NCBI RefSeq assembly: GCF_017352215.1
Contig: NZ_CP071444.1
Span: 1,054,001 to 1,118,000 of the forward strand
DNA: 64,000 bases
Direction of reading: 5' to 3'
DNA from: Alkalibacter rhizosphaerae
Lineage (GTDB): Bacteria; Bacillota; Clostridia; Eubacteriales; Alkalibacteraceae
A program made the position numbers and the translations under genes. This document shows, in pieces, positions 8,565-62,154 of this stretch. Numbering within the stretch: the stretch's first letter is position 1; every line of letters starts with the position of its first letter. The notes beneath the pieces were generated by a model, which was not told the DNA's origin, made no database searches, and saw only the letters and a list, made by a program, of their open reading frames with translations.

Positions 8565-8959
8565 TACAGAAGAGCCATGACCACTGGGAAGGCGATCATG
8601 GAAACAAACAAATGCAAGGAAACAAAATTCAGCACATAATTTTTATGCTCGCACTCCCCAATGATGGAAAGAGGGATCACAAATGGAGGCGGAAGAATAA
8701 ACATGGTATATAGCGCAGCTGTATACAACTCATCCAATTGAAGCCACTGTTGGATGACGAACTTATTGATCAGATATGCCAATGCCAGCATCATGACCAT
8801 TCTAAGCACAACGGCCAGCAGGATGCTTTTCATGTTGTGAAATTCAAAAGGCAACTCAAATCCCACAACGATCAGCATCATGGGCACCGTCACATTTCCA
8901 ACCATCTCAACGGCATCCAATACAGCCAGTCCCACAGGGTTGCTATCCATTCCTGTCCC
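8564..8959 (-). pseudogene. AEC permease, C-terminal part (interrupted by IS)
   Basis: Encodes about 130 residues with four or so membrane helices (VTVPMMLIVVGFELPF, LLAVVLRMVMMLALAYLI and so on) that complete the auxin-efflux-carrier-type transporter begun at 11178. The reading frame continues across the IS3-family insertion at the duplicated target GTCCC. Before insertion the gene would have coded for about 318 residues, normal for AEC transporters of small organic anions. Confidence 0.8.
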
Positions 8960-8997
8960 GGTAATTGTCAACATAGTTGTCGCTTTTCTCAAATATG

Positions 8998-10077
8998 CTA
9001 GCATGCTTTTTCACTGTTTTTTTCTTTTGATGGATTCAGCCAAACGGCTTGTTCCATGGTGCAGTTTTGAACCGGTCCGGTCCATCGTTCAGGGTTCTTT
9101 GCCTTTGCAGTTTCCAGTATTTCTTTTCTTCTTTGAAGGATCTCATCGGACGATCCATTGTGTCTTTGGTTGGGAGTCAAAAATTTCAAGCTGCTGTGGT
9201 GGTGGTCATTATTATAATAATCAACGAAGGCATCGACCCATCTGCGGGCAGTTTCAATATCTGAAAATCCATTATGGGGAAAAGATGGCATGTATTTGAC
9301 CGTTCGGAACATTGACTCAATATAAGCATTGTCATTGCTCACTCTTGGCCTGCTGTTGGATCGCACGATCCCTAGATTATACAGCGTTGTCAACAAGGAA
9401 GCACCTTTCATCGGACTTCCGTTATCAGAATGTAACACCAAAGGCTCGTTCTTCATCAATACATTTTCAGAGTACGCAGCCTTCTTCACAAGAACACTGG
9501 CGTTTTCAGAACTCTCGTGATCCCAGATCTCCCAGCCAACCACTTTGCGGCTGAATAAATCAATGATCATGTACAGGTAATAGTATATTCCTTTCACGGG
9601 ACCGGGAAGCCAGGTGATATCCCACATCCAGACCTGATTGGGGCCTGTTGCACAATGTGTTGTAATATTCTTGCTTATGGGTGCTTTTGCATAGCCCCGA
9701 TGATTGACTTGACCAAAATATCTCAAGACCCGATAAAAACTTGAAACCGAAGCGATATATATTCCTTCTTTATCAATGAGCTTATGAAAGACTTGATTTG
9801 GTGAAAGGCTTCGATGTTCCTTTTGGTTCATCACCTCCAGGATCCTCTTCTCCTCCTCCAAATGCAGCTTGTTTGCAGGTATGGGTCTTAGCGCATCCGG
9901 ACGACCGTCTTTTGTATCGTTACCTTGAACTTTCCAGCGCTGGTAGGTCCTCTCGCTGATACCGACGACTTCGCAAGCCTTGAACTGTCTGGCTCCAGAA
10001 AGGACTGCTTCGTCGATGGCCACAACCACTTTGATGCGATTTGATTGGCTGGTCAATCTTCCTCGTCCGAACTCCAA
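8998..10077 (-). CDS. IS3-family transposase OrfB (DDE integrase core)
   Basis: 359 residues. An HTH-like N-terminus (ACEVVGISERTYQRWK) precedes an rve-type core with the catalytic acids in MWDITWLPG, LHSDNGSPM and NAYIESMF. It overlaps orfA by 25 bases in the -1 frame. The only initiator in its own frame is TTG, so it is probably made as an OrfAB fusion through -1 slippage on the A AAA AAG motif in the nine-A run at 10090-10098. Confidence 0.92.
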   Translation of the reverse strand: MEFGRGRLTSQSNRIKVVVAIDEAVLSGARQFKACEVVGISERTYQRWKVQGNDTKDGRPDALRPIPANKLHLEEEKRILEVMNQKEHRSLSPNQVFHKLIDKEGIYIASVSSFYRVLRYFGQVNHRGYAKAPISKNITTHCATGPNQVWMWDITWLPGPVKGIYYYLYMIIDLFSRKVVGWEIWDHESSENASVLVKKAAYSENVLMKNEPLVLHSDNGSPMKGASLLTTLYNLGIVRSNSRPRVSNDNAYIESMFRTVKYMPSFPHNGFSDIETARRWVDAFVDYYNNDHHHSSLKFLTPNQRHNGSSDEILQRRKEILETAKAKNPERWTGPVQNCTMEQAVWLNPSKEKNSEKAC

Positions 10078-31761: not shown

Positions 31762-31768
31762 TCCATTG

Positions 31769-31809
31769 AAAAACTCCCGCTCAACAAAAGGTTGAAGCGG
31801 GAGTTTTTA
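31769..31809 (+). terminator. Terminator of nfnAB
   Basis: AAAAACTCCCGCTCAAC pairs with GTTGAAGCGGGAGTTTTT around an AAAA loop, with one bulge; a T run ends it. The stem resembles the hairpin at the end of the TnpB elements in this window. Confidence 0.85.
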
Positions 31810-32594: not shown

Positions 32595-32809
32595 ACGCCG
32601 TCCTCCTTCTCGCTGATAGTGTAGCAGAATACCTTGGTTGCTTCCATCAACTATGGCGCAACTTTGTGGTTGCATCGACTGGATGAAATAGAAAATCGAA
32701 TTCATCTACCAATAACATTGTGCCGATAACAGTTTCATTTTTCTCTAATCCACTCCGCCTTTTCTCTGGTTATCACATGGATCCATATTTGCGATTCGTG
32801 TTTTTACCC

Positions 32810-32948
32810 TTGAACTACCCCCGCTTAACCAAAGGTTTGAAGCGGGAGATTCCGATTCATGGAACCGGACATTCCTGTTCGCAAAGAGTTTGGGATTTAA
32901 GTTTCCCCCTGTCATCCAGGGTCCCCTTATCCGATGGATCTTGATCGC
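32810..32948 (-). ncRNA. Omega-RNA (reRNA)-like right end of copy A
   Basis: The 139 bases after the tnpB stop are almost the same as those of the full element at 43988-44126, including the terminal hairpin with CCCGCTTAACC/GGTTTGAAGCGGG. In IS200/IS605 elements this region makes the guide RNA of TnpB. The guide would be read from the flank beyond 32810. Expression is inferred. Confidence 0.5.
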
Positions 32949-33320
32949 TCAGGCAACCGTGATCCTTGCAGGGTGGTTCAAGCACCCATTATCCCTCCAC
33001 CCGGCAACGGGCATGGGGATTACATGTTTGTCATAGACCCTTAAGATGTTTAAGGATCCGTTGATGTCGCTGTTTACCAGTTGTTGATTCTGGGTCTGGA
33101 AGAGTCCTCTTTGGATACGCCGACTCTTGTCGTAGGAGCCTTTCTCCACCGGTTCCAGGTCGTAGGCACTGACTCCGGAGGTGTAGGCTTCTTTTACCAC
33201 TACCACGTCCATCCCCACCAGGGCTGCTTTGTACCTGATCATCTCCACCAGTCGCTGGACGGAGATCTGGACAAACCCCTTGACGGGAGAATGCTGCTTG
33301 ATTCCTTTGAGATCTCCCAG
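32949..33320 (-). pseudogene. Truncated tnpB (C-terminal part)
   Basis: About 124 codons matching the C-terminal part of the TnpB encoded at 44127-45363: KGIKQHSPVKGFVQISVQRL, YTSGVSAYDLEPVEKGSY and DINGSLNILRVYDK. The N-terminal two thirds are deleted, so the RuvC site is incomplete. Confidence 0.8.
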
Positions 33321-33427
33321 GGTGTATTCTTGCCTAAGTTGATAAAAAACCACCTCTTCAGTTTTGAGATGATTTTATCGTTCAAGAGTTGCTATGAATA
33401 TGTGTACTGGAATATGCGCTTGCATTT

Positions 33428-36172: not shown

Positions 36173-36235
36173 AATCAACTCTCCCTTCTTAATAATCGGT
36201 AATTGTCAACATAGTTGTCGCTTTTCTCAAATATG

Positions 36236-37315
36236 CTAGCATGCTTTTTCACTGTTTTTTTCTTTTGATGGATTCAGCCAAACGGCTTGTTCCATGGTGC
36301 AGTTTTGAACCGGTCCGGTCCATCGTTCAGGGTTCTTTGCCTTTGCAGTTTCCAGTATTTCTTTTCTTCTTTGAAGGATCTCATCGGACGATCCATTGTG
36401 TCTTTGGTTGGGAGTCAAAAATTTCAAGCTGCTGTGGTGGTGGTCATTATTATAATAATCAACGAAGGCATCGACCCATCTGCGGGCAGTTTCAATATCT
36501 GAAAATCCATTATGGGGAAAAGATGGCATGTATTTGACCGTTCGGAACATTGACTCAATATAAGCATTGTCATTGCTCACTCTTGGCCTGCTGTTGGATC
36601 GCACGATCCCTAGATTATACAGCGTTGTCAACAAGGAAGCACCTTTCATCGGACTTCCGTTATCAGAATGTAACACCAAAGGCTCGTTCTTCATCAATAC
36701 ATTTTCAGAGTACGCAGCCTTCTTCACAAGAACACTGGCGTTTTCAGAACTCTCGTGATCCCAGATCTCCCAGCCAACCACTTTGCGGCTGAATAAATCA
36801 ATGATCATGTACAGGTAATAGTATATTCCTTTCACGGGACCGGGAAGCCAGGTGATATCCCACATCCAGACCTGATTGGGGCCTGTTGCACAATGTGTTG
36901 TAATATTCTTGCTTATGGGTGCTTTTGCATAGCCCCGATGATTGACTTGACCAAAATATCTCAAGACCCGATAAAAACTTGAAACCGAAGCGATATATAT
37001 TCCTTCTTTATCAATGAGCTTATGAAAGACTTGATTTGGTGAAAGGCTTCGATGTTCCTTTTGGTTCATCACCTCCAGGATCCTCTTCTCCTCCTCCAAA
37101 TGCAGCTTGTTTGCAGGTATGGGTCTTAGCGCATCCGGACGACCGTCTTTTGTATCGTTACCTTGAACTTTCCAGCGCTGGTAGGTCCTCTCGCTGATAC
37201 CGACGACTTCGCAAGCCTTGAACTGTCTGGCTCCAGAAAGGACTGCTTCGTCGATGGCCACAACCACTTTGATGCGATTTGATTGGCTGGTCAATCTTCC
37301 TCGTCCGAACTCCAA
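36236..37315 (-). CDS. IS3-family transposase OrfB, copy 2
   Basis: 359 residues, same protein as the copy at 8998-10077, with DDE residues in MWDITWLPG, LHSDNGSPM and NAYIESMF. Probably expressed as an OrfAB fusion by -1 slippage at the A run at 37328-37336. Confidence 0.92.
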   Translation of the reverse strand: MEFGRGRLTSQSNRIKVVVAIDEAVLSGARQFKACEVVGISERTYQRWKVQGNDTKDGRPDALRPIPANKLHLEEEKRILEVMNQKEHRSLSPNQVFHKLIDKEGIYIASVSSFYRVLRYFGQVNHRGYAKAPISKNITTHCATGPNQVWMWDITWLPGPVKGIYYYLYMIIDLFSRKVVGWEIWDHESSENASVLVKKAAYSENVLMKNEPLVLHSDNGSPMKGASLLTTLYNLGIVRSNSRPRVSNDNAYIESMFRTVKYMPSFPHNGFSDIETARRWVDAFVDYYNNDHHHSSLKFLTPNQRHNGSSDEILQRRKEILETAKAKNPERWTGPVQNCTMEQAVWLNPSKEKNSEKAC

Positions 37316-40314: not shown

Positions 40315-40361
40315 TTGAACTACCCCCGCTTAACCAAAGGTTTGAAGCGGGAGTAGTTCAA
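40315..40361. repeat. Lone TnpB-element end hairpin (copy B)
   Basis: A 47-base palindrome, TTGAACTACCCCCGCTTAAC to GTAGTTCAA, with the same core (CCCGCTTAACCAAAGGTTTG then AAGCGGGAG) as the right ends of the TnpB elements at 32810 and 43988. Here both arms close into a full hairpin and no other part of the element is present. Confidence 0.7.
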
Positions 40362-40712: not shown

Positions 40713-42323
40713 TTATTTATTTTTTCCTTGATTTCTTATGATTTCCTGGGTCGCATGCCAGCCTGTTAGCATTGCAATAGGAACCCCCGCTGGAGCATAG
40801 GCCCATTGGCCCGCTTGAAATACATTTGGGATAGGAGTTTGAGCCGATTTCGGCATATCTTTCAGTTCGTTGAAAACAGGTGATTTTGTTTCAAAGGACC
40901 AGCCTACTATAGCTCCGCCAGTGCTTCCAACCGTCTTGCGAATTGTCAAGGGCGTCGTTGAAAATTTAAATAGAATATCCTTTTCGAAATCCTGGTAGAA
41001 GGATTTCGAGAATATTTTTATGATTTGATTCTCCATTTCGTTTTTAAACTCATCTATCCAACCAGCCCCATTGATTTTATCGACAACATCATAATCAAAA
41101 AGACAACTGATCATTATTCCCGTCTTTCCATCTGGGGCAAGGGTAGAATCTCTAAGAGCCGGTATCGAAACTTCGAAAGTATTTAAATTACAAAAATCAT
41201 TTAACCAAGCAAATACTTCTTCCTTGGATTTCTTTTCAAAATCCTCTATAAGTTCTTCCTTTGTTTCTCGATTTGTCTTTCCCAAGCCTTTTCGTGATGG
41301 AGTATAGAACGCATGCTCCCCTCCTTTTTCTCTGAAGTATGAAAGAGGGCGATCTACTGCAAGATACAGGATAAAGCTGGATTCAGCAGGCTTGGAAGAA
41401 AAAATCATCTCGCTTTGAGCAGCTATCTTTTTAGTAACATTCTCGTCTAATCCTATTGTATTGAGTCCCTTATACAACGTTTTCAAGTCTGCCGCCCATA
41501 TAAGATGATCATATTCATAGATATTCCCATCTGAATCGGTAACTTTCGATTTTGATGGAATAACTTCTTTTATAGTCGTATTAAGTTTGAATTTTCCGCC
41601 GCCTTCTAAAATCTTCTCATGTAAAAGTTTTGGCAAAACACCCGTTCCGCCTTTTGGATAAAAGTAATCAAGCCAAACGTGAAAATATCCCAGTGCAAAA
41701 TAAGTGGGTGTTTTTCTAAAGAAAAACTGAGTCAGTATGTCTTTTAGGGACTCGTTGTCCGTTAGATCCCCGAGAAATTCTTCCATTGGCATATTAAACT
41801 GCTTGAATTTTCTTAAAGTATAAAGCAACTTGAATGTCCAAGGTAGTAATTTTGTAAGAACAAATTTCTTATCACTCATGTAATCCACAAAATAAGGATT
41901 ATCGAATGCATACAACGTTTTTGTATATTCCGAAAGCTTTTGAATGCTCTTACCTATCTTCTCTATATCGTCAGCATCCTCAGGATATAAATTGATTAAT
42001 GTCTGCTTGTAATCATTAAGTGAATCCATAGAATCAACTCGAAACATCTGGTCTTCTATTGCTAATGAAATTACATTTTCCATGGTTTCCCACTCAATGC
42101 CTAGATCTTTCAAAATAGGTTTCACCATTCCGGAATTCACAAAAGCTCTTGGTCCAGTATCAAAGGAAAACCCTTCCCGCGAAAATGTATGTACTAATCC
42201 TCCCGTTCTATCATTTTTTTCTAACAATAAAACATCATAATTTTCTTTACATAGATAGGCGCTAGCAGTCAAGCCTCCCATTCCAGCTCCAACGATTACA
42301 ACTTTGCCTTTTTTGTTATTCAC
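40713..42323 (-). CDS. Phytoene-desaturase-like FAD oxidoreductase
   Basis: About 536 residues. N-terminal FAD motif KVVIVGAGMGGLTASAYLCK, LLLEKNDRTGGLVHTF, and C-terminal VFQAGQWAYAPAGVPIAMLT characteristic of the CrtI/CrtISO/NAD(P)-amine oxidoreductase group. GTG at 42323 follows AGGAGG; its start overlaps the stop of the SDR gene. In the family, substrates include carotenes and other polyisoprenoids or retinoids. Without crtB/crtM nearby the substrate cannot be named. Third gene of a set with an SDR and a membrane protein. Confidence 0.8.
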   Translation of the reverse strand: MNNKKGKVVIVGAGMGGLTASAYLCKENYDVLLLEKNDRTGGLVHTFSREGFSFDTGPRAFVNSGMVKPILKDLGIEWETMENVISLAIEDQMFRVDSMDSLNDYKQTLINLYPEDADDIEKIGKSIQKLSEYTKTLYAFDNPYFVDYMSDKKFVLTKLLPWTFKLLYTLRKFKQFNMPMEEFLGDLTDNESLKDILTQFFFRKTPTYFALGYFHVWLDYFYPKGGTGVLPKLLHEKILEGGGKFKLNTTIKEVIPSKSKVTDSDGNIYEYDHLIWAADLKTLYKGLNTIGLDENVTKKIAAQSEMIFSSKPAESSFILYLAVDRPLSYFREKGGEHAFYTPSRKGLGKTNRETKEELIEDFEKKSKEEVFAWLNDFCNLNTFEVSIPALRDSTLAPDGKTGIMISCLFDYDVVDKINGAGWIDEFKNEMENQIIKIFSKSFYQDFEKDILFKFSTTPLTIRKTVGSTGGAIVGWSFETKSPVFNELKDMPKSAQTPIPNVFQAGQWAYAPAGVPIAMLTGWHATQEIIRNQGKNK

Positions 42324-43258
42324 CTTAATCCTCCTAATTCGAGACTCAATAGCCACAATTTTTCTGCTTCTGCCCGGTCCAATGCAGGCGGTGCAGGTTC
42401 TTCTTCCGTTGTAAGATTAAAAAACCTACCGCTTATATTCTCGACCTTCTTGGAAACACCCAGAAAGTACAATGATTCGGAAGAATTGTCTATGGATCTT
42501 GCATTTACATCAATAATTGCTTTTTTAAATAATTTGTAAAGCTTACCATTACTTTTACCACTATTGGTTTTCACATTCCCCGGATGCATCGCATTTATCG
42601 TTACTCCGGTCCCAGAAAAATACTCATCGAATTTTATCATTGACAGTAGTTGTGCCAATTTTGCCGCACCATAGCTTTTTAGTCCTGAGTATGAATGTTT
42701 ATCATATCCAAGGTCATCCAAGTGAAGACCCCAAACGGCAAAACGATGAGCCTCGGAATTTACGAATATGATGCGCCCCCGTTTTTGTTTGATAAATTTT
42801 TCCTTAATATAGTAATTGATGATAAATGTACTCAAATAATTCGTTTGAAAAACCTGTTCGAGATGATCTTCCGTATAAGTTTTTTTTGTAAGATGGACAC
42901 CCGCATTATGAATGAAAACATCTATGTCTCTCTCCAGTGCCGCCAGTTTTTTCCCTACTCTATGACTATCGTCTAATCTTGAAAAATCAGCGATCATATA
43001 GGAACAAATGGCACCGTAATGGCTCTTAAGCATTTCGCACAGTTTTTTTGATTTTTCCTCATTTCTGTTGATACATAAAATATCAGCGCCATGAGAAGCA
43101 TATTTTTTTGCAGCGTCATAACCTATACCGGAAGTTGCTCCAGTAATGACCACCAAACGATTCTTAAAATCATCCGTACAAATTTCAGGGTCTAATTTTT
43201 GATTATGCAGCATTTTAAAAATATTTGACCATTTATATTGTTTAAAATATTTATTCAT
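42320..43258 (-). CDS. Short-chain dehydrogenase (retinol-dehydrogenase-like)
   Basis: About 312 residues. Cofactor motif TGATSGIGYDAAKKYASHG at about residue 42, HNAGVH, catalytic YGAAKLAQ; C-terminal extension ending in PALDRAEAEKLWLLS as in RDH/WWOX-like long SDRs. ATG at 43258 after GGAGG. Translationally coupled to the desaturase-like gene downstream, so both probably act on one lipophilic substrate. Confidence 0.85.
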   Translation of the reverse strand: MNKYFKQYKWSNIFKMLHNQKLDPEICTDDFKNRLVVITGATSGIGYDAAKKYASHGADILCINRNEEKSKKLCEMLKSHYGAICSYMIADFSRLDDSHRVGKKLAALERDIDVFIHNAGVHLTKKTYTEDHLEQVFQTNYLSTFIINYYIKEKFIKQKRGRIIFVNSEAHRFAVWGLHLDDLGYDKHSYSGLKSYGAAKLAQLLSMIKFDEYFSGTGVTINAMHPGNVKTNSGKSNGKLYKLFKKAIIDVNARSIDNSSESLYFLGVSKKVENISGRFFNLTTEEEPAPPALDRAEAEKLWLLSLELGGLR

Positions 43259-43424
43259 ACAACCTCCATTAACGAAAAATGTCTTGAGCAACGAGAAGTT
43301 TCCACAGTTTTTTCAGCGGATCATCAATGACTTCACGTGGATTCCAATACAATAGAATTTTTTGTTTTAGAATATCAAAGTGAGATTAATAACGCAAGAA
43401 TCGGGGAGCGAATCACTATTTTGT

Positions 43425-43859
43425 TTATAGGAATATCGATAGTAAGAGCGCTGCAAAAAACACGGCAACAAAGAAAATAATCATAATGCACAGTGATTTT
43501 GAATAGCCTTTCGGCGTAATTTGGCTGTTTTTATCCATTTCCCTGATTATGGGAAACAATCTCCAAAAAAACGATAATATAGAGACGATCAAAGCGACCA
43601 CTGTCCACAGCTTTGTGGCTTCTCCACCCGTAAACAAAATCACTATTAAAAGCGCAAGAAAAATCAACTTGGTACCAGCCACCCAATTTACCAGATATCG
43701 AACAAATCTATGCATTTCAGGGTCCGCCTTAGATTTTTCCCATGCATTAAAGACTCCTACTCCGTTTGCTCTTTGTGAACCTGGAAAAAAATATAACGTT
43801 ATAACATTTGATACCTCAAGCACAGTGAACAGAAAAATCGCGATCATCAATATAGGCAT
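43425..43859 (-). CDS. Four-helix membrane protein
   Basis: 144 residues with four hydrophobic helices (about 1-22, 58-80, 84-102, 124-144) and a GTGAGG site upstream of the ATG. I know no family for it. It is the first gene of the strand set with the SDR and the desaturase-like gene (spacing 166 bases to the SDR), and could be an anchor or lipid-related partner. Confidence 0.6.
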   Translation of the reverse strand: MPILMIAIFLFTVLEVSNVITLYFFPGSQRANGVGVFNAWEKSKADPEMHRFVRYLVNWVAGTKLIFLALLIVILFTGGEATKLWTVVALIVSILSFFWRLFPIIREMDKNSQITPKGYSKSLCIMIIFFVAVFFAALLLSIFL

Positions 43860-43942
43860 GTTTTCAACCTCACTACAAATTTATTATTTGCTTCATCTTT
43901 GTCACTTCATCAATAGATGTTTTTTCACTTTATATTGCACCT

Positions 43943-43987
43943 ATTTGAAAACATTCTCAGGCATTCTTCGCCCTCAATTCGCTGTTG
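43943..43987. repeat. IS6-family relic, split by the TnpB element (left part)
   Basis: ATTTGAAAACATTCTC and CGCCCTCAATTCGCTGTTG match the start-codon region and leader of the IS6 copy at 61168-62021. The matching remainder continues at 45524-45597 on the other side of the TnpB element. Confidence 0.65.
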
Positions 43988-44126
43988 TTGAACTACCCCC
44001 GCTTAACCAAAGGTTTGAAGCGGGAGATTCCGATTCATGAAACCGGACATTCCTGTTCGCAAAGAGTTTGGGATTTAAGTTTCCCCCTGTCAGCCAGGGT
44101 CCCCTTATCCGATGGATCTTGATCGC
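43988..44126 (-). ncRNA. Omega-RNA (reRNA)-like right end of copy C
   Basis: 139 bases between the tnpB stop and the element end, with several inverted segments and a terminal hairpin (CCCGCTTAACCAAAGGTTTG then AAGCGGG). Near-identical in copy A. In characterised elements this region is the scaffold of the TnpB guide RNA; the guide here would begin with CAACAGCGAATTGAGGG from the flank. Confidence 0.5.
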
Positions 44127-45363
44127 TCAGGCAACCGTGATCCTTGCAGGGTGGTTCAAGCACCCATTATCCCTCCACCCGGCAACGGGCATGGGGACTA
44201 CATGTTTGTCATAGATCCTCAAGATGTTTAAGGATCCGTTGATGTCGCTGTTTACCAGTTGTTGATCCTGAGTCTGGAACAGTCCTCTTTGGATACGCCG
44301 GCTCTTGTTGTAGGAACCCTTTTCTACAGGCTCCAGGTCGTAGGCACTGACTCCGGAAGTATAGGCTTCCTTTACCAGTACCACTTCCATCCCCACCAGG
44401 GCTGCCTTGTACTTGATCATCTCCACCAGTCGCTGGACGGGGATCTGGACAAACCCCTTGATGGGAGAGTGTTGCTTGATTCCTTTGAGATCTCCCAGAA
44501 CGATGGTATGGCAACCATGACTCACAGCCAGATCCACCACCTTGCGGCTCACCTTGTGGAGGGCATCCTGGAGGTAGTTGTGCCGTTTCTGGTACAAGCG
44601 GCGGATCCTCTTGGTGGTCTGGTAATTGGCGGCACCTGTTTGCTTCATCTCCAGGCCGGTAAACCGTCGGATCTGCTGGTTGTAATAAGCGTTCTTTGCT
44701 TTCAAGGTCTTCCCGTTTATTAGGACTTGTTCCATGCTGCGCTGGAAGGTGATGGCGCACAGATTGTCCAGACCCAGGTCGATGCTCATCACATTGTTCC
44801 AGGATTCTGGCAGGACCTTTTCTTCCACCTTGTAGATGAAGCGAAGCACCCATCTTCTTTGCATCTTGTCCCAGGAAAAACATGCTTGCTGCATTTTATT
44901 GCCACCCAACTGCTGCAACACCCATGGTGGGAGTGTCACATCGAGACTTGGTAGACAGTGGGTTTTCTGCATAGCTTTGGACAGGGACAGTTTCAACACC
45001 CTTCCTTTCAGGCGGAGGGCAAAGTTGGTGAAGAGGACTTGGTTCTTGAAAGTTCCGCCCTTGTATCTTGGGGGATGGGGGGGACCCAGGTACTTGTGTG
45101 GGTTCTTGTTGTGATCCTCCCTGCTTCGAAAGCCAGTCCTGGTCTAAGAGCTTGAGGCACTGCTGGTAGGTATGGGAATGAAGATGATCCCGATGCCAGT
45201 TATCTTGCAGCTGCCTTTCCAGCTCCACGTAAGAGATCCACCCTTCCTCCCGACACTGGTAGTTGGCAATGTTGTAGAGTTTGGTGGTGTGGAAGGACAG
45301 TTCCTCCACGATTTGGAGCTGTGTGGTTGTTAATTTTGGGTAGTATTTCAAGGCAAGACGCAT
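44127..45363 (-). pseudogene. tnpB: tnpB, RNA-guided nuclease gene with a frameshift
   Basis: Two overlapping frames together give an about 412-residue TnpB: an N-terminal part from ATG at 45363 (RLALKYYPKLTTTQLQIVEE to LLDQDWLS) and a C-terminal part in another frame from about 45120 (HKYLGPPHPP, KGGTFKNQVLFTNFALRLKG onward to 44127). The shift lies near 45120-45145. RuvC motifs: VMSIDLGLDNL (first Asp) and SDINGSLNIL (last Asp); the middle motif reads IVLGDLKGIKQ with Gly where many TnpB proteins have Glu. No CxxC zinc finger pair is present. Either a pseudogene or a sequencing error. Confidence 0.75.
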
Positions 45364-45523
45364 GAGGAACCTCCTGTTCGAAAGGGAACGTATGTTCTAA
45401 TTATGCTTCTCCAATAGCAGGATGTCCACTACTTAGAATGATATTTACAGATTATTTATAGTATGCAAAAACCAGGCAATTCATCACCCGGTTATAGAAC
45501 GGGGTGTATTCTTGCCTAAGTTG

Positions 45524-45597
45524 ATAAATTAATTCTATCAAATATTTCAAGAATTGAATATGTGGATTTTCTGTTCAGATATTTTTGCAAAGGAACC
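45524..45597. repeat. IS6-family relic (right part)
   Basis: ATAAATTAATTCTATCAAAT and TATGTGGATTTTCTGTTCAG to TTTTTGCAAAGGAACC match the outer end of the IS6 copy that ends at 62021. The terminal inverted repeat is degraded (GCAAAGGAACC against GCACCAGAACC). Confidence 0.65.
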
Positions 45598-45640
45598 AAC
45601 GTATTGAGGGGGCTAAGTTTGTATGGTTTATGCCCCCTGT
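45598..45640. repeat. GTATTGAGGGGG hairpin repeat, copy 1
   Basis: AACGTATTGAGGGGGCTAAG, then TTTGTATGGTTTATGCCCCC. The same block occurs at 49582-49620. Stem GGGGGC/GCCCCC. It abuts the end of an IS6 relic here. Confidence 0.55.
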
Positions 45641-45664
45641 TATTTTCAACTTTCTTGATATGCA

Positions 45665-46579
45665 TTATCGCAACAAACTCAAATATTGTGAAAGCCTATC
45701 TTTCACGTATTCTCCAATCATATTCACCATCGGAGATGCATCGTTATCCCGATAATAGCTATCAAAACAAGAGTAATATTTTCTTCGATCAGCAAACTTC
45801 ACATCGATAGGCGGATATCCCGCCTGCATGAGCATGAGATTCAATATTAACCGGCCAGCACGCCCATTCCCGTCAACAAAAGGATGAATTCCCTCAAAAA
45901 TCAGATGGAATAAAGCTGCAGTATGTATGATATGCCGGTTTTCACTGGATAACTCCGCGATCAACCGCTCCATTTGAACTGGAACAAGATATGGTTGCGG
46001 AGGTTCATGGTGCGCACCCATAATCTTCACCGGTATTCTCCTATAGACACCCTTATCTTCTGGTCTGTCAATCAAAACAAGTGCGTGAATTTCACGTAAT
46101 ATCCGTTCCGAAATAGGAACATTTCCACTGACAAGGGTAACAACATAACGAAATGCGTCGCGATGCCCCACTGCTTCAAGATGGTCTTTAAGCGGTTTTT
46201 GATCAATTGTCACACCCTCCAAGGCTAGTGCCGTTTCCCGAAGTGTAAGGGTATTACCCTCAATGGCGTTTGAGTTGTATGTAAATTCCACTAAGAATTC
46301 GTCCTGCAAACGCTTTAATTCTCCGCTTGTCAATGGACGTCGTCGGTCTATTTCTGCCTTCATCTCATCGATAGTCTCAAAGAGTGCGGCGTATTGTTTT
46401 GGAATCTCCTTGCCGCGGAGACTGCGTCCATCGATTGGCTTTAATGAATCCTCCGGAATGAGGTAGGATCGTCCGTCTCTGATAACCCCCTTAATCCGCC
46501 CCTCCTTACAAAGTACACGAACACGGCGATCGGATAGTCCCCATCGCTCCGCAGCCTGTTTTACTGTAATATATTCCAC
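45665..46579 (-). CDS. Fic-domain protein with N-terminal DNA-binding motif
   Basis: About 304 residues. N-terminal MerR/excisionase-like helix-turn-helix (VKQAAERWGLSDRRVRVLCK), then the class II inhibitory helix YNSNAIEGNTL with (S/T)xxxE(G/N), and the Fic core HPFVDGNGRAGRLILNLMLM (HPFxxGNGRxxR) near residue 225. The complete motif predicts AMP transferase activity held back by the inhibitory Glu. GTG at 46579 has GGAGG at normal spacing; GTG at 46588 is too close to it. Target unknown; regulators and filamentation-type toxins are possible. Confidence 0.88.
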   Translation of the reverse strand: MEYITVKQAAERWGLSDRRVRVLCKEGRIKGVIRDGRSYLIPEDSLKPIDGRSLRGKEIPKQYAALFETIDEMKAEIDRRRPLTSGELKRLQDEFLVEFTYNSNAIEGNTLTLRETALALEGVTIDQKPLKDHLEAVGHRDAFRYVVTLVSGNVPISERILREIHALVLIDRPEDKGVYRRIPVKIMGAHHEPPQPYLVPVQMERLIAELSSENRHIIHTAALFHLIFEGIHPFVDGNGRAGRLILNLMLMQAGYPPIDVKFADRRKYYSCFDSYYRDNDASPMVNMIGEYVKDRLSQYLSLLR

Positions 46580-46729
46580 ATTTTTCACCTCCGTTACTCT
46601 TTCAGTATACTGCGCATTCGGAATAATATCAACTTATAATCTAACATTTACAATCGTATCATTCCTTTTAATCGAGGAGATTTTTACTAGTGAATTGAAC
46701 CGCAGAGGAAAAGCGATACTCTGTTTTGA

Positions 46730-46763
46730 GGTTCTGGTGCAAAAACTTCAAATACACAGAAGT
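46730..46763. repeat. Solo IS6-family end
   Basis: GGTTCTGGTGCAAAAACTTC followed by AAATACACAGAA matches the left ends of the IS6 copies at 48628 and 61168. No transposase remains. The rest of the 46580-46848 gap shows nothing else. Confidence 0.65.
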
Positions 46764-46848
46764 CAGTCATTATTGGATGGGACAGCAAAGATGAAATCAA
46801 ATTTTCATCCGCTTTACTGTATTGCTTAATTTCCATTCATTTCACCGT

Positions 46849-47775
46849 CTATTTTATCCTTTTCCTGAAATCAGCAAGCAAGAAAACGGCATCAAACATT
46901 TCATCCGAACACAAGTCGAAAACTATGGGAAAATATTTCAGTTTTCCCATTTGTTGCACGCCCGATATCATTCGCTTCACCTCATTGTCAAGAGGAAGAC
47001 TTAATACATCTACACGGGCTTTTTCGGGAACATAGATAGTCACCTTGAAAAAACTGTTCCAAATCGATAACCAAAAAACAGTTGTTTCATTTTGACCGCC
47101 TCGAACGCCTGTCCACTTATAAATTCCCTTTGCCAGCCACGCCTTACCGTCGATGTAGTAACGCCATTCCAACTGAATATCGTGGCATGCAAGTTCGTTG
47201 ATAAACTTTATATAGGCGTTGTTCGATTCACCAAGTGCCTTTGAAATAACGTCACTCGACGGTTGAATATCAGGGTTTCTGAGCATTTGTTCCTTAGTTG
47301 ATCTTATAACTTCAGTTTCCGATTTTTTATTATCCATTTCCCACCGATATTTTTTGTTTATAACAAGCGTATCAATATTACAATTTAGACATAGTCCGTT
47401 ATGGCAGCAAATAGTCCCTCCACACCCTGTACAACGCCATTTATCACGTTCCTTCTTCAAGAATTCTTCCATGCCAAATTCCTTGATGTCGTTGAGGTTT
47501 TCTATCATGCTCATATGGTATTTTGTACGGTAGCGCTTATCCAATGCCTTCAATCTCTTACAAGGGAATATTTCGCATTCAAAACAAAAACGAACGCTTC
47601 CTTTTGCCAACAATTCACACGCATCTCTCATATGCGTGCAGTTTTCTCCCCGCGGAATGCATCCCGGGCAATATTTTTTATGAAACCCTCGTTTGTTGAA
47701 ATCATTTTCTTTAAACTGATAAGCGATACATAAAGCGCAGTTCATCCCGCAAGGGGCGATCAATTTTTCATCCAT
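46849..47775 (-). CDS. DUF3795 + DUF3788 fusion protein
   Basis: 308 residues in two parts. N-terminal Cys-rich part (about 1-130) with APCGMNCALCIAYQ, YCPGCIPRGENCTH, CFECEIFPCKRLK and CTGCGGTICCHNGLCLNC, a DUF3795-type metal-binding region. C-terminal part (about 150-308) with WRYYIDGKAWLAKGIYKW and FKVTIYVPEKA, typical of DUF3788. Both domains are uncharacterised. GAGGTG site before the ATG. Adjacent to a helical-repeat protein on the same strand. Confidence 0.75.
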   Translation of the reverse strand: MDEKLIAPCGMNCALCIAYQFKENDFNKRGFHKKYCPGCIPRGENCTHMRDACELLAKGSVRFCFECEIFPCKRLKALDKRYRTKYHMSMIENLNDIKEFGMEEFLKKERDKWRCTGCGGTICCHNGLCLNCNIDTLVINKKYRWEMDNKKSETEVIRSTKEQMLRNPDIQPSSDVISKALGESNNAYIKFINELACHDIQLEWRYYIDGKAWLAKGIYKWTGVRGGQNETTVFWLSIWNSFFKVTIYVPEKARVDVLSLPLDNEVKRMISGVQQMGKLKYFPIVFDLCSDEMFDAVFLLADFRKRIK

Positions 47776-47845
47776 AGATACACCTCTTCATTTAACACAC
47801 ATATATCCTGTTCTTTCAATCTCAGAAACACCTGAATTCAATGGA

Positions 47846-48505
47846 TTATATTCTTTTGCCTGAATGGTTTCTCAAAAATTTCTCAGCGTTTTTTGCCACC
47901 GATTTTCGTCGACAACCTAGCTGTTCTTCTGCGAATTTAATCATCGCAGCTTGATTCCCCGAGCAATCAAAATAATGTTCAAAACATTCCAGCACCTTCC
48001 CACGCACTATGTAATTGCACTCGGGAGAAGGTTCGCCTTTATTAATATAAATAATATTTGGTACTTCTAGTAATCTCCTGGTGATATCACTTTCCAGTTC
48101 AGGCTTGGCAAGTACAATTTTCCATGCATTGCCAACAACATTAGCTGCCGTAATCATCTGTGGATCATGAATCAATGCAAAGTAGTCCTGGTAGATTGTC
48201 CTAAACTTATCTTCATAGTCTACCGCTGCGAGATTAGACAGAGTTAGGATTCCGTCCCATTTGATGAAACTGTTATTGTGATGGGTCCACTTGACAATAT
48301 CTTCAAAGTAGGGGTAGATGAGTTCCGGCCTTTGCTCACTCACCCTACGAATGATTTTTGAACACGTATATTTGATACTTGATGATTCTGTTACGACAAT
48401 CTCAAAAAAGGAAATTAAGATTGTTGTATTTTCAATTGCTTCAACGATTAACAGATTCAAGTCCGGTTTTGCTTTTAAACGATTTATTAGTATTTCTTTA
48501 TCCAA
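47846..48505 (-). CDS. HEAT/ARM-like helical-repeat protein
   Basis: About 219 residues of regular amphipathic helices: IKYTCSKIIRRVSEQRPELI, YFEDIVKWTHHNNSFIKWDG, ILTLSNLAAVDYEDKF, MITAANVVGNAWKIVLAKPE. The pattern is of HEAT-like repeats; the end (EEQLGCRRKSVAKNAEKFLR) is basic. TTG at 48505 follows GGTGGGAG. A HEAT-like adaptor of unknown partner. Confidence 0.65.
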   Translation of the reverse strand: MDKEILINRLKAKPDLNLLIVEAIENTTILISFFEIVVTESSSIKYTCSKIIRRVSEQRPELIYPYFEDIVKWTHHNNSFIKWDGILTLSNLAAVDYEDKFRTIYQDYFALIHDPQMITAANVVGNAWKIVLAKPELESDITRRLLEVPNIIYINKGEPSPECNYIVRGKVLECFEHYFDCSGNQAAMIKFAEEQLGCRRKSVAKNAEKFLRNHSGKRI

Positions 48506-48627: not shown

Positions 48628-49472
48628 GGTTCCGGTGCAAAAATTTCAACTGCACAGAACTCAACCCTTATTTCTTGAATCCTTATGCCCCTATCCCAAG
48701 CACTTCATTTATCACGCTCACTTCAGAGTGGACACATTGAATTCCTTCAACCTGTCCTTTTCGAATCATGTGCATTATTTCAATTCCACAAATGGTCTTC
48801 AATGCACTTTCATAACTATGAAAACCAAGCATCGGATTGATCTTCTTTTTTATGAACCGATGATCCTGCTCTATAATATTATTCAAATATTTTGTCATCC
48901 GGTATTGCGTTTTACAACTCAAACTTCCATAATAGATCTCTTCAAGAATAGCGATTTCTGTCGCTCCATATTTGTCCGTTGTAATGACTCTTCGCTGCTG
49001 ATTGTGAGGAGCTTTTACCGATTTCTTGAAGAACTTTCTTGCGGCATTCTTGTCACGATTCTCTGAAACATAGAAGTCTACCGTGTTCCCATCCGAATCC
49101 ACGGCCCGGTACAGATATGCATTCTTTCCCTTAATCTTCAAATATGTTTCGTCCATTCGCCAGGAATCTTTTGTTTTCTTGACTCTATTGCGGATTCTTT
49201 CATCAAGGATTGGGGAATATTGATGGACCCATCTCATGATTGTGGTATGAGTTACTTTCAAACCTCTTTCCGCCATCATTTCTACCAGCATCCTATAACT
49301 CAGAGGATATTCCAGATACCACCTGATACATAAGACAATAATCCCTGATTCATAATGCTTCCATTTAAAAAGATTTTCCGTCATTTTTCGCCCTCGATTC
49401 ATCCTTAATACTTGGATTTTATCAAAGATCGAGAAAGTTGGAAAAGGGATTGATGTTTTTTGCACTAGAACC
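48628..49472 (-). mobile_element. IS6-family insertion sequence, copy 1
   Basis: 845 bp bounded by inverted repeats GGTTCCGGTGCAAAAA (left) and, reverse-complemented, GGTTCTAGTGCAAAAA (right). No target duplication is seen, which is common for IS6 elements after recombination. One transposase gene inside. Confidence 0.85.
48683..49384 (-). CDS. IS6-family transposase, copy 1
   Basis: About 233 residues from ATG at 49384. HTH region YRMLVEMMAERGLKVTHTTI, then DDE residues in WRMDETYLKI, VITTDKYGAT and NIIEQDHRF. Length and motifs match IS6 (IS26/IS240-like) transposases. Closely related to, but not the same as, the copy at 61223-61924. Confidence 0.9.
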   Translation of the reverse strand: MTENLFKWKHYESGIIVLCIRWYLEYPLSYRMLVEMMAERGLKVTHTTIMRWVHQYSPILDERIRNRVKKTKDSWRMDETYLKIKGKNAYLYRAVDSDGNTVDFYVSENRDKNAARKFFKKSVKAPHNQQRRVITTDKYGATEIAILEEIYYGSLSCKTQYRMTKYLNNIIEQDHRFIKKKINPMLGFHSYESALKTICGIEIMHMIRKGQVEGIQCVHSEVSVINEVLGIGA

Positions 49473-49634: not shown

Positions 49635-50984
49635 GGGGGAGTGTAAAATAAATTGTGCTTTTAGCTAATCCAACTATAATAACATTAAGGAGTTGTTGGA
49701 AATGGCTAAGAGCAAAAATCCAAGAATTATGTCCCAGGATCAAGTAAGGCAGTTTATCAAAGAAAACGAGATTCAATCCGTGGAGGATATCCAAAACGTC
49801 CTCAAAGACATGTTTGCAGAAACGCTGCAAGGCATGCTGGAAGGGGAAATGGATACTCATCTCGGGTACCAGAAACACGAAGATGCCAAAAAAGAAACTG
49901 CAAATCGTCGAAATGGACATAGTTCCAAATCAGTCCGCAGCGATTATGGCGAAGTGAGTCTGGACATTCCACGGGATCGAGAGAGTGAATTCGAACCTGT
50001 AATCGTCAAGAAAGGCCAAAGAAACGTGACCGGCATCGAAGATCAAGTCATAGCCTTGTACGCCAAAGGGGTCAGCACAAGAGACATTCAAGCTCATTTG
50101 GAGCAGCTCTATGGGATTGAGGTTTCCCCTACCTTGATATCCAACATTACAAACAAAATTATGCCTACCATAAAGGAATGGCAAAACCGCCCTCTTATGA
50201 GGACTTATGCCATGGTTTTCTTGGATGCCATTCATTATAAAGTCAAACAAGATGGTATGATTGTCAATAAAGCGGCCTATATGGTCATCGGCATCGACAT
50301 GGATGGACAGAAGGATGTCCTGGGCATGTGGATTGGCGAAAACGAAACCTCCAAGTTCTGGCTGGTAGTACTCAACGAACTGAAAAACCGGGGTGTGGAG
50401 GATATTCTTATTGTCAGCGTCGATAATCTAAAAGGTTTTAACGAAGCAATCGCTGCCTGCTATCCGCAAGCAGAAATCCAAAAATGCATCGTTCACCAGA
50501 TTCGCAACAGTGTTCGATACGTCAACTATAAGGATCTACGAAAAGTTACAGCTGATTTAAAACCAATCTATCAAGCACCCAGTGAGGAAGCAGGATTGGA
50601 GGCACTCAATGAATTTGAAGCCATTTGGGGGAGCAAATACCCTCTTATTGTGAGTTCCTGGCGAAATAACTGGGCGGAACTGGCAACCTTCTTTAAATAC
50701 CCGCCACAGATCAGAAAGATCATCTATACTACAAATATCATAGAAAGCTACCATCGTCAATTACGTAAAGTGACCAAAGGGAAAGCTATCTTTCCCACAG
50801 ATGATGCCTTGATGAAAATGCTGTATTTAGTAACGCAGGATGTCATGAAAAAATGGACTGGACGAGTGCACAACTGGGGGCAAATCCTCCTGCAGCTGTC
50901 CGTATTCTTTCCGGAACGGGTCAAAAGTTATCTGCCGTAAAAGGGATCACTAGCTAAAAGCACAAAATTATTGACAGACCCCCC
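49635..50984 (+). mobile_element. IS256-family insertion sequence
   Basis: About 1350 bp. The ends share an inverted repeat with GGGGG...GTG/CTGT..AATA.ATTTTGTGCTTTTAGCTA; left GTGCTTTTAGCTA at 49655 and right TAGCTAAAAGCAC at 50951. Exact ends are estimated to a few bases. One intact transposase gene. Confidence 0.82.
49702..50940 (+). CDS. IS256-family mutator-type transposase
   Basis: About 412 residues from ATG at 49702 (AAGGAG upstream). Family pattern EGEMDTHLGYQKHE, RRNGHSSKSVRSDYGEVSLD, and DDE residues in VFLDAIHYKV, IVSVDNLKGF and TTNIIESYHR. Intact, so the element may still move. Confidence 0.93.
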   Translation: MAKSKNPRIMSQDQVRQFIKENEIQSVEDIQNVLKDMFAETLQGMLEGEMDTHLGYQKHEDAKKETANRRNGHSSKSVRSDYGEVSLDIPRDRESEFEPVIVKKGQRNVTGIEDQVIALYAKGVSTRDIQAHLEQLYGIEVSPTLISNITNKIMPTIKEWQNRPLMRTYAMVFLDAIHYKVKQDGMIVNKAAYMVIGIDMDGQKDVLGMWIGENETSKFWLVVLNELKNRGVEDILIVSVDNLKGFNEAIAACYPQAEIQKCIVHQIRNSVRYVNYKDLRKVTADLKPIYQAPSEEAGLEALNEFEAIWGSKYPLIVSSWRNNWAELATFFKYPPQIRKIIYTTNIIESYHRQLRKVTKGKAIFPTDDALMKMLYLVTQDVMKKWTGRVHNWGQILLQLSVFFPERVKSYLP

Positions 50985-53638: not shown

Positions 53639-53722
53639 GTTTCGCTAAATAGTTAAAATAGGGGTCCCCCCCCTAAATGCCAATAATTTTCCAATACAGC
53701 GTATATAAGTACTCATAATTAG
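53639..53722. repeat. 84-bp direct repeat, copy 1
   Basis: GTTTCGCTAAATAG through GGGGTCCCCCCCCTAAATGC to CGTATATAAGTACTCATAAT. It matches 59247-59329, which ends exactly at the border of the IS5/IS1182-type element. The 511-base gap 53394-53905 holds this repeat and a terminator but no gene. Confidence 0.75.
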
Positions 53723-59246: not shown

Positions 59247-59329
59247 GTTTCGCTAAATAGCTAAAACAGGGGTCCCCCCTAAACGCCAATAATTTTCCCC
59301 ATACAGCGTATATAAGTACTCATAATTAG
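59247..59329. repeat. 84-bp direct repeat, copy 2
   Basis: Same as 53639-53722 with a few substitutions. It ends at CATAATTAG, right where the IS5/IS1182-type element begins. Confidence 0.75.
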
Positions 59330-61167: not shown

Positions 61168-62021
61168 GGTTCCGGTGCAAAAACTTCAACTGCACAGAAC
61201 TCCGCCATAGTTTCTCTAATCCTTATGCAGCTACCCCTAATAATTCATTAATCATACCAACTTCGGAATGGACACATTGAATTCCTTCAACCTGCCCTTT
61301 TCGAATCATATGCATGATTTCAATTCCACAAATGGTCTTCACTGTGTTTTCATAACTATAAAAACCAAGCATCGGATTGATCTTCTTCTTTATGAACCGA
61401 TAATCCTGCTCTATAATGTTATTCATATATTTTGTCATTCGGTGTTGTGTCTTACAGCTCAAACTCCCATAATAGATCTCTTCAAGAATAGCGATTTCAG
61501 TTGCTCCATATTTATCCGTAGTAATGACTTTTGGCTGCTGATTGTGAGGAGCTTCTACCGATTTCTTGAAGAACTTCCTAGCAGCGTGCTTGTCACGGAA
61601 TTCTGAAACAAAGAAGTCTACTTTATTTCCATCTGAATCCACTGCTCGATACAGATATGCATTTTTCCCCTTGATTTTCAGATATGTCTCATCCATTCTC
61701 CAGGAATCGTTCGTTTTCTTGAGACGTTTTCGCAATCTTTCATTGATTATCGGAGAATATTGATGCACCCATCTCATAATGGTAGTATGGGTTACATTCA
61801 CACCTCTCTCGGCCATCATTTCCACCAACATTCGGTAGCTTAACGGATATTTCAAATACCATCTCACACATAAAATGATAATCTCTGATTCAAAGTGCTT
61901 CCATTTGAAAAGATTCTCCGCCATTTTTCGCCCTCAATTCGCTGTTGATGGATTAATTCTATCAAATATTTCCAGAATTAAATATGTGGATTTTCTGCTC
62001 AGAGATTTTTGCACCAGAACC
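61168..62021 (-). mobile_element. IS6-family insertion sequence, copy 2
   Basis: 854 bp with inverted repeats GGTTCCGGTGCAAAAA and, at 62021, GGTTCTGGTGCAAAAA (reverse-complemented). Intact transposase. Source of the match for the relics at 40468, 43943, 45524 and 46730. Confidence 0.85.
61223..61924 (-). CDS. IS6-family transposase, copy 2
   Basis: 233 residues, HTH YRMLVEMMAERGVNVTHTTI and DDE residues in WRMDETYLKI, VITTDKYGAT and NIIEQDYRF. About 90 percent like the copy at 48683-49384 by eye, so the two are related subfamily members, not a single recent burst. Confidence 0.9.
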   Translation of the reverse strand: MAENLFKWKHFESEIIILCVRWYLKYPLSYRMLVEMMAERGVNVTHTTIMRWVHQYSPIINERLRKRLKKTNDSWRMDETYLKIKGKNAYLYRAVDSDGNKVDFFVSEFRDKHAARKFFKKSVEAPHNQQPKVITTDKYGATEIAILEEIYYGSLSCKTQHRMTKYMNNIIEQDYRFIKKKINPMLGFYSYENTVKTICGIEIMHMIRKGQVEGIQCVHSEVGMINELLGVAA

Positions 62022-62154
62022 TCAAACGCTATTTTCATACACATTCTCCCCGGCGCTAACAATAGTATCTTGTCATCCCAATATACTAATCCCCGTTCAT
62101 AATAACACTCTGATCCTAATAATTCTTAGAAAATTAGAAGTTTTATTATACCTC

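What the first reader, a model, noticed from the sequence alone, without database searches (positions are those of the whole stretch)
43988..45523. TnpB element with a clear RNA-guide architecture and a deduced target-adjacent motif
Both ends can be placed because copies A and C share them and because C sits inside an IS6 relic. On the element strand TTTAT precedes the left end and TTCAA closes the right end. The 139 bases after tnpB are near-identical in copies A and C, as expected of a guide-RNA scaffold. This gives a testable motif and guide for each copy.
Basis: partly seen in the sequence, partly recalled or inferred. Interest (0 to 1): 0.6.

Follow-up and report, generated by a model that had tools for sequence, protein, structure and literature searches.

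The report
Broken TnpB transposon with guide-RNA ends
This is a worn-out copy of a common bacterial jumping gene of the kind that carries an RNA-guided DNA cutter; its ends, its target motif (TTTAT) and the guide-RNA scaffold can all be read and are confirmed by relatives, but the cutter gene itself is broken here, so it is an ordinary relic with a well-defined family behind it.

Summary
Window 43988-45523 (minus strand) is a 1,536-bp IS200/IS605-type element that lacks tnpA. It has a left-end hairpin, tnpB, a right-end hairpin ending TTCAA, and sits in an IS6 relic directly after TTTAT.

Relatives confirm TTTAT: it stands before nearly every left end that could be placed, including sets of copies whose flanks otherwise differ. 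The right end is TTCAA or TTCAC.

Compensatory changes across 23 sequences support one hairpin inside the tnpB 3' end, and a stem pairing tnpB coding sequence with the region after the stop.

(1) tnpB of this copy lacks 8 nt and is frameshifted; copy A is a deletion remnant; no other TnpB and no IS200-type TnpA was found in this genome, so nothing native should cut or move it. (2) The whole subfamily lacks the canonical RuvC-II glutamate; an invariant glutamate lies at the 'alternative' position known from Fanzors and rearranged TnpBs, and the zinc ribbon is lost.

Verdict: a dead member of a known kind. Motif and guides are good predictions, testable only with an intact relative's protein.

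The parts
45524..45528 (-). TTTAT, target-adjacent motif (TAM) in the flank before the left end
   Evidence: Sequence; same motif before the left end of relatives, found by hairpin without requiring TTTAT
45474..45523 (-). Left end with imperfect hairpin (AGGCAA...CACCC...GGGTG...TTGCCT)
   Evidence: DNA fold z = -3.4; same layout in relatives
45133..45363 (-). tnpB, N-terminal part (about 77 codons homologous), frame 1
   Evidence: Profile A3 matches model positions 1 onward here; ORF 44896-45363 runs on out of frame
44127..45131 (-). tnpB, C-terminal part in another frame; net loss of 8 nt against aligned relatives just upstream; RuvC residues present
   Evidence: translation; alignment A3; PF01385, PF07282; NF040570; profile positions 79-415
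43988..44176 (-). Inferred guide-RNA (omega/reRNA) scaffold, overlapping the last about 50 nt of tnpB
   Evidence: Covariation; sub-threshold full-length match to RF02656 sot0042 at 44027-44203, bits 16.8 vs gathering 88, E 0.16
44149..44165 (-). Scaffold hairpin 1, entirely within tnpB coding sequence
   Evidence: Pairs with changes on both sides at 3 of 5 positions, other 2 invariant
44141..44147 (-). Scaffold helix 2, 5' strand (in tnpB)
   Evidence: 7 of 7 pairs show compensatory changes across relatives
44059..44065 (-). Scaffold helix 2, 3' strand (after tnpB stop)
   Evidence: As above
43988..44024 (-). Right-end hairpin and terminal TTCAA
   Evidence: DNA fold z = -3.9 for 43988-44034; TTCAA/TTCAC in relatives
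43968..43987 (-). Predicted guide of copy C (CAACAGCGAATTGAGGGCGA)
   Evidence: Flank immediately after TTCAA; the only other match of its core in the genome (18 bases, up to 2 mismatches) is the IS6 copy at 61928-61947, which has TCCAT not TTTAT
45524..45597 (-). IS6 relic, part left of the element
   Evidence: 88% to 61944-62021
43929..43987 (-). IS6 relic, part right of the element
   Evidence: 81% to 61889-61955
32810..33341 (-). Copy A: internal-deletion derivative, first 21-22 nt of the left end joined to the last 372 nt of tnpB and the right end; TTTAT at 33342-33346, guide 32790-32809
40315..40361 (-). Solo right-end hairpin extended to a 47-nt near-perfect palindrome (TTGAACTAC...GTAGTTCAA)
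   Evidence: DNA fold z = -8.9

Best explanation
A degenerate, non-autonomous IS200/IS605-type element. In intact relatives a Y1 TnpA moves the element as a single strand, joining it 3' of TTTAT; the tnpB transcript supplies a guide RNA whose scaffold starts inside the tnpB 3' end and finishes at TTCAA, with the guide read from flanking DNA; TnpB plus that RNA cuts the emptied site (TTTAT + guide), favouring return or retention of the element. In this genome tnpB is broken and TnpA is absent, so the loci are relics that at most make an orphan RNA. Shown here: ends, TTTAT, RNA covariation, broken tnpB, no other TnpB or IS200-type TnpA found, relocated glutamate. Inferred from work on other elements: single-strand transposition, RNA processing, cutting, retention.
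For: Pfam/NCBIfam hits; ends and comparison with the uninterrupted IS6 copy; TTTAT before the left end in relatives, including L013/L030/L038 of one genome, L054/L056 of another, and L069/L070/L072, plus L043, L044, L058-L060, L062, L064-L068, L071 and L046; helices with 55 double-changed cells against 20 +/- 4 in shuffles and covariation 0.41 against 0.19; A/C contrast; divergent Y1 tnpA plus ribbon-helix-helix gene in relatives; only two tnpB remnants in the whole genome; the three Y1_Tnp hits lie in 254-278 aa frames, RAYT-like and not beside these ends; fold closest to Cas12f and TnpB. Literature: reRNA overlaps the tnpB 3' end and TAM = insertion motif (PMC8612924), TnpB processes its own mRNA (PMC10278001).
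Against: No RNA data. No true empty site carrying TTTAT was found for A, or for four relatives searched in viral contigs; the IS6 comparison copy for C reads TCCAT. Copies within one genome may not be fully independent insertions, although their outer flanks differ. The left end of L051 could not be placed with TTTAT, and a left-end fragment elsewhere in this genome is preceded by ATTAT.
Confidence: 0.9

Rival explanations
1. The element is still functional: tnpB is read as one protein despite the frame change (programmed frameshift, or the C-terminal frame works alone), so the locus makes an active RNA-guided nuclease.
For: RuvC residues, scaffold and ends are all kept; the C-terminal frame is open for 338 codons.
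Against: Most relatives have one continuous frame of about 400-437 codons; C lacks 8 nt at a conserved stretch, which is not a one-base slip; the C-terminal frame lacks the N-terminal domain.
Confidence: 0.04
2. The subfamily is nuclease-dead and acts as an RNA-guided DNA binder (like TldR), since the canonical RuvC-II glutamate is missing in every member.
For: The canonical position is G in the members that cover it (IVIGDI/IVIGKL).
Against: RuvC-I D198, E335 at the alternative position and RuvC-III D376 are invariant in all 15 aligned proteins; an ortholog of the rearranged RII-r5 clade is an active nuclease (PMC10278001) and Fanzors carry the alternative glutamate (PMC10711439); the elements keep transposon ends, and some keep tnpA.
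Confidence: 0.1
3. The conserved right end is only the DNA hairpin that TnpA needs, not a guide-RNA scaffold.
For: A right-end hairpin is required for IS605 transposition (established knowledge) and is present.
Against: Helix 2 pairs tnpB coding sequence with the region after the stop, and hairpin 1 lies inside tnpB, both with compensatory changes; a DNA end hairpin would not need these.
Confidence: 0.04

Closest known systems
IS200/IS605 elements with tnpB (e.g. ISDra2)
   Same: Left and right hairpins, insertion 3' of an AT-rich pentamer, guide RNA from tnpB 3' end and right end, guide taken from the flank
   Different: TTTAT instead of TTGAT; tnpA absent here; tnpB broken; ribbon-helix-helix gene in some relatives
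TnpBs with rearranged RuvC-II glutamate (RII-r clades of Nety et al. 2023, PMC10278001; E-alt TnpBs/Fanzors of PMC10711439)
   Same: Glutamate absent from the canonical position and invariant seven positions before the place of the first zinc-ribbon cysteine
   Different: RuvC-I is DLG not DPG, and the zinc ribbon is lost (S..D.E in place of CxxC); which RII-r subclade it belongs to was not determined
Haloarchaeal sotRNAs (RF02656), now regarded as omega RNAs (PMC12558985)
   Same: Position over the tnpB 3' end; weak full-length covariance match
   Different: Score far below the family's gathering threshold (16.8 vs 88 bits)
TldR (nuclease-dead TnpB regulators)
   Same: Canonical RuvC-II residue missing
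   Different: Complete alternative D-E-D set kept; transposon context kept

Membership tests
IS200/IS605 insertion sequences | Subterminal hairpins at left and right ends, no target duplication | tested here: met
   DNA folds z = -3.4 and -3.9; flanks join without duplication against the IS6 copy
IS200/IS605 insertion sequences | Insertion 3' of a fixed short motif | tested here: met
   TTTAT before the left end in relatives
IS200/IS605 insertion sequences | Y1 (HUH) TnpA in autonomous members | tested here: met
   Divergent Y1_Tnp-like gene in relatives L045-L047, L054, L063 (Pfam on L054's); absent from the window element, and no IS200-type gene seen in its genome
TnpB RNA-guided nucleases | TnpB sequence family and fold | tested here: met
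   NF040570 121.9 bits over cut-off 100; Foldseek of intact relative L043 to Cas12f and TnpB structures
TnpB RNA-guided nucleases | Complete open reading frame in this copy | tested here: not met
   Frameshift, 8 nt lost
TnpB RNA-guided nucleases | Canonical D-E-D RuvC triad | tested here: not met
   Canonical E is G; alternative E335 invariant
TnpB RNA-guided nucleases | Right-end guide RNA overlapping tnpB 3' end | tested here: inconclusive
   Strong covariation; no expression data
RuvC-II-rearranged (E-alt) TnpBs | Glutamate six residues upstream of the first zinc-ribbon position | tested here: met
   E-A-Y-T-S-G-V-S in the window (E, six residues, then the ribbon position), E invariant in A3; definition from PMC10711439
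RuvC-II-rearranged (E-alt) TnpBs | RNA-guided DNA cleavage | not testable with these tools
   Needs biochemistry with an intact relative
Cas12f CRISPR effectors | Adjacent CRISPR array | tested here: not met
   No short direct repeats at 41500-48000; NF049972 54 bits against cut-off 450
TldR | Loss of RuvC catalytic residues | tested here: not met
   D198, E335, D376 invariant, with the glutamate at the alternative place

The most novel reading that the evidence does not exclude
The intact relatives form a TTTAT-specific RNA-guided nuclease group whose RuvC site uses the relocated glutamate and has replaced the zinc ribbon by an invariant S-x-x-D-x-E patch, a catalytic and structural variant not yet characterised biochemically, with a ribbon-helix-helix gene controlling tnpA/tnpB in part of the group.
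Probability: 0.2. Interest if true: 0.45.

Novelty: new member of a known kind. Interest (0 to 1): 0.22.

Why it matters
It gives a clean, comparison-backed motif (TTTAT), element boundaries and guide-RNA structure for a TnpB branch with a relocated active-site glutamate and no zinc ribbon. The window copies show a plausible end stage of such elements: nuclease and transposase lost, ends and RNA scaffold left behind. For the biology of this genome it is minor.

Tried and rejected
Empty site for copy A in 12 related genomes: none hold the locus. Empty sites for three copies in G146's genus: no other genome held. Empty sites for L068 in phages and for L068, L069, L070, L072 in viral contigs: none. 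IS6 segment in plasmids: no match. Rfam: nothing above threshold; the snoU82P match is taken as chance, sot0042 is weak but correctly placed. A single-sequence RNA fold of the right end is not exceptional (z = -1.8), so the structure rests on covariation. Considered and dropped: the idea that the intact IS6 copy lost its motif (TCCAT) to escape cutting by C's guide; two changes in five bases at roughly 10% divergence is not telling, and TnpB here is dead.

Full report
What is there. On the minus strand, 45523-43988 is a 1,536-bp element: left-end hairpin, tnpB, right end finishing GTTCAA. TTTAT (45528-45524) stands directly before it. The whole-genome search finds this copy, copy A (32810-33341), and short end fragments: 40315-40361 in the window, 31766-31806 in the window (probably only a similar terminator), a left end at genome position 2361960 (preceded by ATTAT) and a right end at 1531541. 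Copy A keeps TTTAT, 21-22 nt of the left end, the last 372 nt of tnpB and the right end; about 1 kb is deleted.

Boundaries. Copy C splits an IS6 relic. Joining its flanks reproduces the uninterrupted IS6 copy at 61889-62021 with no duplication or loss. The C boundary alone is ambiguous by CAAC, which begins both element and target. Relatives settle it: in G146 three copies share TTTAT|AATATTGGCACAAG with different outer flanks and continue differently right after TTCAC; L069, L070 and L072 share TTTAT|CAGAAAACAAGC and differ after TTCAA; L054 and L056, from one genome, share TTTAT|AA. Further left ends with TTTAT: L043, L044, L058, L059, L060, L062, L063, L064, L065, L066, L067, L068, L071 and L046. 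In one search left ends were located by their hairpin motif without asking for TTTAT. TTTAT occurs at 0.2% of positions in the window. One possible exception is L051, whose left end could not be placed cleanly.

tnpB is broken. The frame from the start codon at 45363 and the RuvC frame are different. Against the alignment of relatives the window lacks 8 nt between a conserved Trp and a conserved Phe (window 45133/45131; NWKSYF in relatives). The profile of the family matches the two frames as two pieces, 1-104 and 79-415, that overlap in the region of the frame change. No other TnpB is found in the genome by protein, by NCBIfam profile or by the family's own profile. Three Y1 transposase hits are in 254-278 aa frames resembling REP-associated transposases and do not border these ends. 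So the copies should neither cut nor move with genes of this genome; movement by an imported TnpA is not excluded.

Guide RNA. A/C identity is highest from inside tnpB onward: with the family-defined start at 44176, 2 differences in 189 nt against 25 in 322 nt upstream (p = 0.0007). Across 23 sequences, hairpin 1 (44149-44165, all within tnpB), helix 2 (44141-44147 with 44059-44065, tnpB with post-stop region) and a short helix 3 give 81.5% paired cells (shuffles 66.5), 55 cells with changes on both sides (shuffles 20.1, sd 3.8), and all slid versions score far lower. I named these helices after looking at the alignment, so the cells-paired figure is favoured; but RNAalifold on its own recovers helices 1 and 2 and a variant of helix 3. 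The Rfam match to sot0042, a haloarchaeal RNA now regarded as an omega RNA (PMC12558985), spans 44027-44203 but is weak. An RNA overlapping the tnpB 3' end with a guide of about 16 nt from the flank is what was found for ISDra2 (PMC8612924), and TnpB can cut it out of its own mRNA (PMC10278001). Predicted guides: C, CAACAGCGAATTGAGGGCGA; A, GGGTAAAAACACGAATCGCA. C's guide matches the intact IS6 copy perfectly, but that site has TCCAT.

The active site. In 15 aligned proteins D198, E335 and D376 (L043 numbering) are invariant; the canonical RuvC-II position reads G. Six residues separate E335 from the first zinc-ribbon position, which is the 'E-alt' place described for Fanzors and some TnpBs (PMC10711439). 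The ribbon itself is lost. One ortholog of a RuvC-II-rearranged clade (RII-r5) cuts DNA (PMC10278001), so the missing canonical residue is not evidence of a dead enzyme. The model of the intact relative L043 (pLDDT 80, pTM 0.58) matches AsCas12f, OsCas12f, ISDra2 TnpB and a viral Fanzor2.

Family context. The closest intact relative is 63% identical, in a Clostridiales MAG (L043); others at 43-52% are in Clostridium, Tepidibacter, Hathewaya, Brevibacillus, virus-like contigs and a record in the plasmid collection. Several relatives carry a divergent Y1 tnpA and/or a small ribbon-helix-helix gene upstream of tnpB, which places the group within IS200/IS605 by test, not by resemblance alone.

Judgement. 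The implied function is not: this is a relic. Known kind, low interest, with a useful side line in the intact relatives.

Noticed in passing
window 40315-40361: Solo right-end hairpin whose outer bases are mirrored into a 47-nt near-perfect palindrome (DNA fold z = -8.9), next to an IS6 fragment; could act as a two-way terminator or be a minimal mobile palindrome.
   Followed up: partly
L046 2488-2661, also L045, L047, L054, L013, L069, L071: A small ribbon-helix-helix gene lies antisense just upstream of tnpB in many relatives, in some together with tnpA; a likely regulator of tnpA/tnpB.
   Followed up: partly
window 61928-61952: The uninterrupted IS6 copy matches copy C's guide for 20 of 20 bases but has TCCAT in place of the TTTAT motif.
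   Followed up: yes
window 45665-46588: Fic-domain protein with an N-terminal HTH_17 domain immediately beside the IS6 relic.
   Followed up: partly
window 48683-49465, 49693-50940, 61200-62030: Dense insertion-sequence neighbourhood: IS6-type (DDE_Tnp_IS240) transposase genes and a Mutator/IS256-type transposase.
   Followed up: partly
window 8959-9258 and 36197-36496: Identical direct repeats of 300 nt, 27 kb apart, not identified.
   Followed up: no
window 53662-53722 and 59269-59329: Two related 61-nt repeats starting GGGTCCCCCCC, 79% alike, not identified.
   Followed up: no
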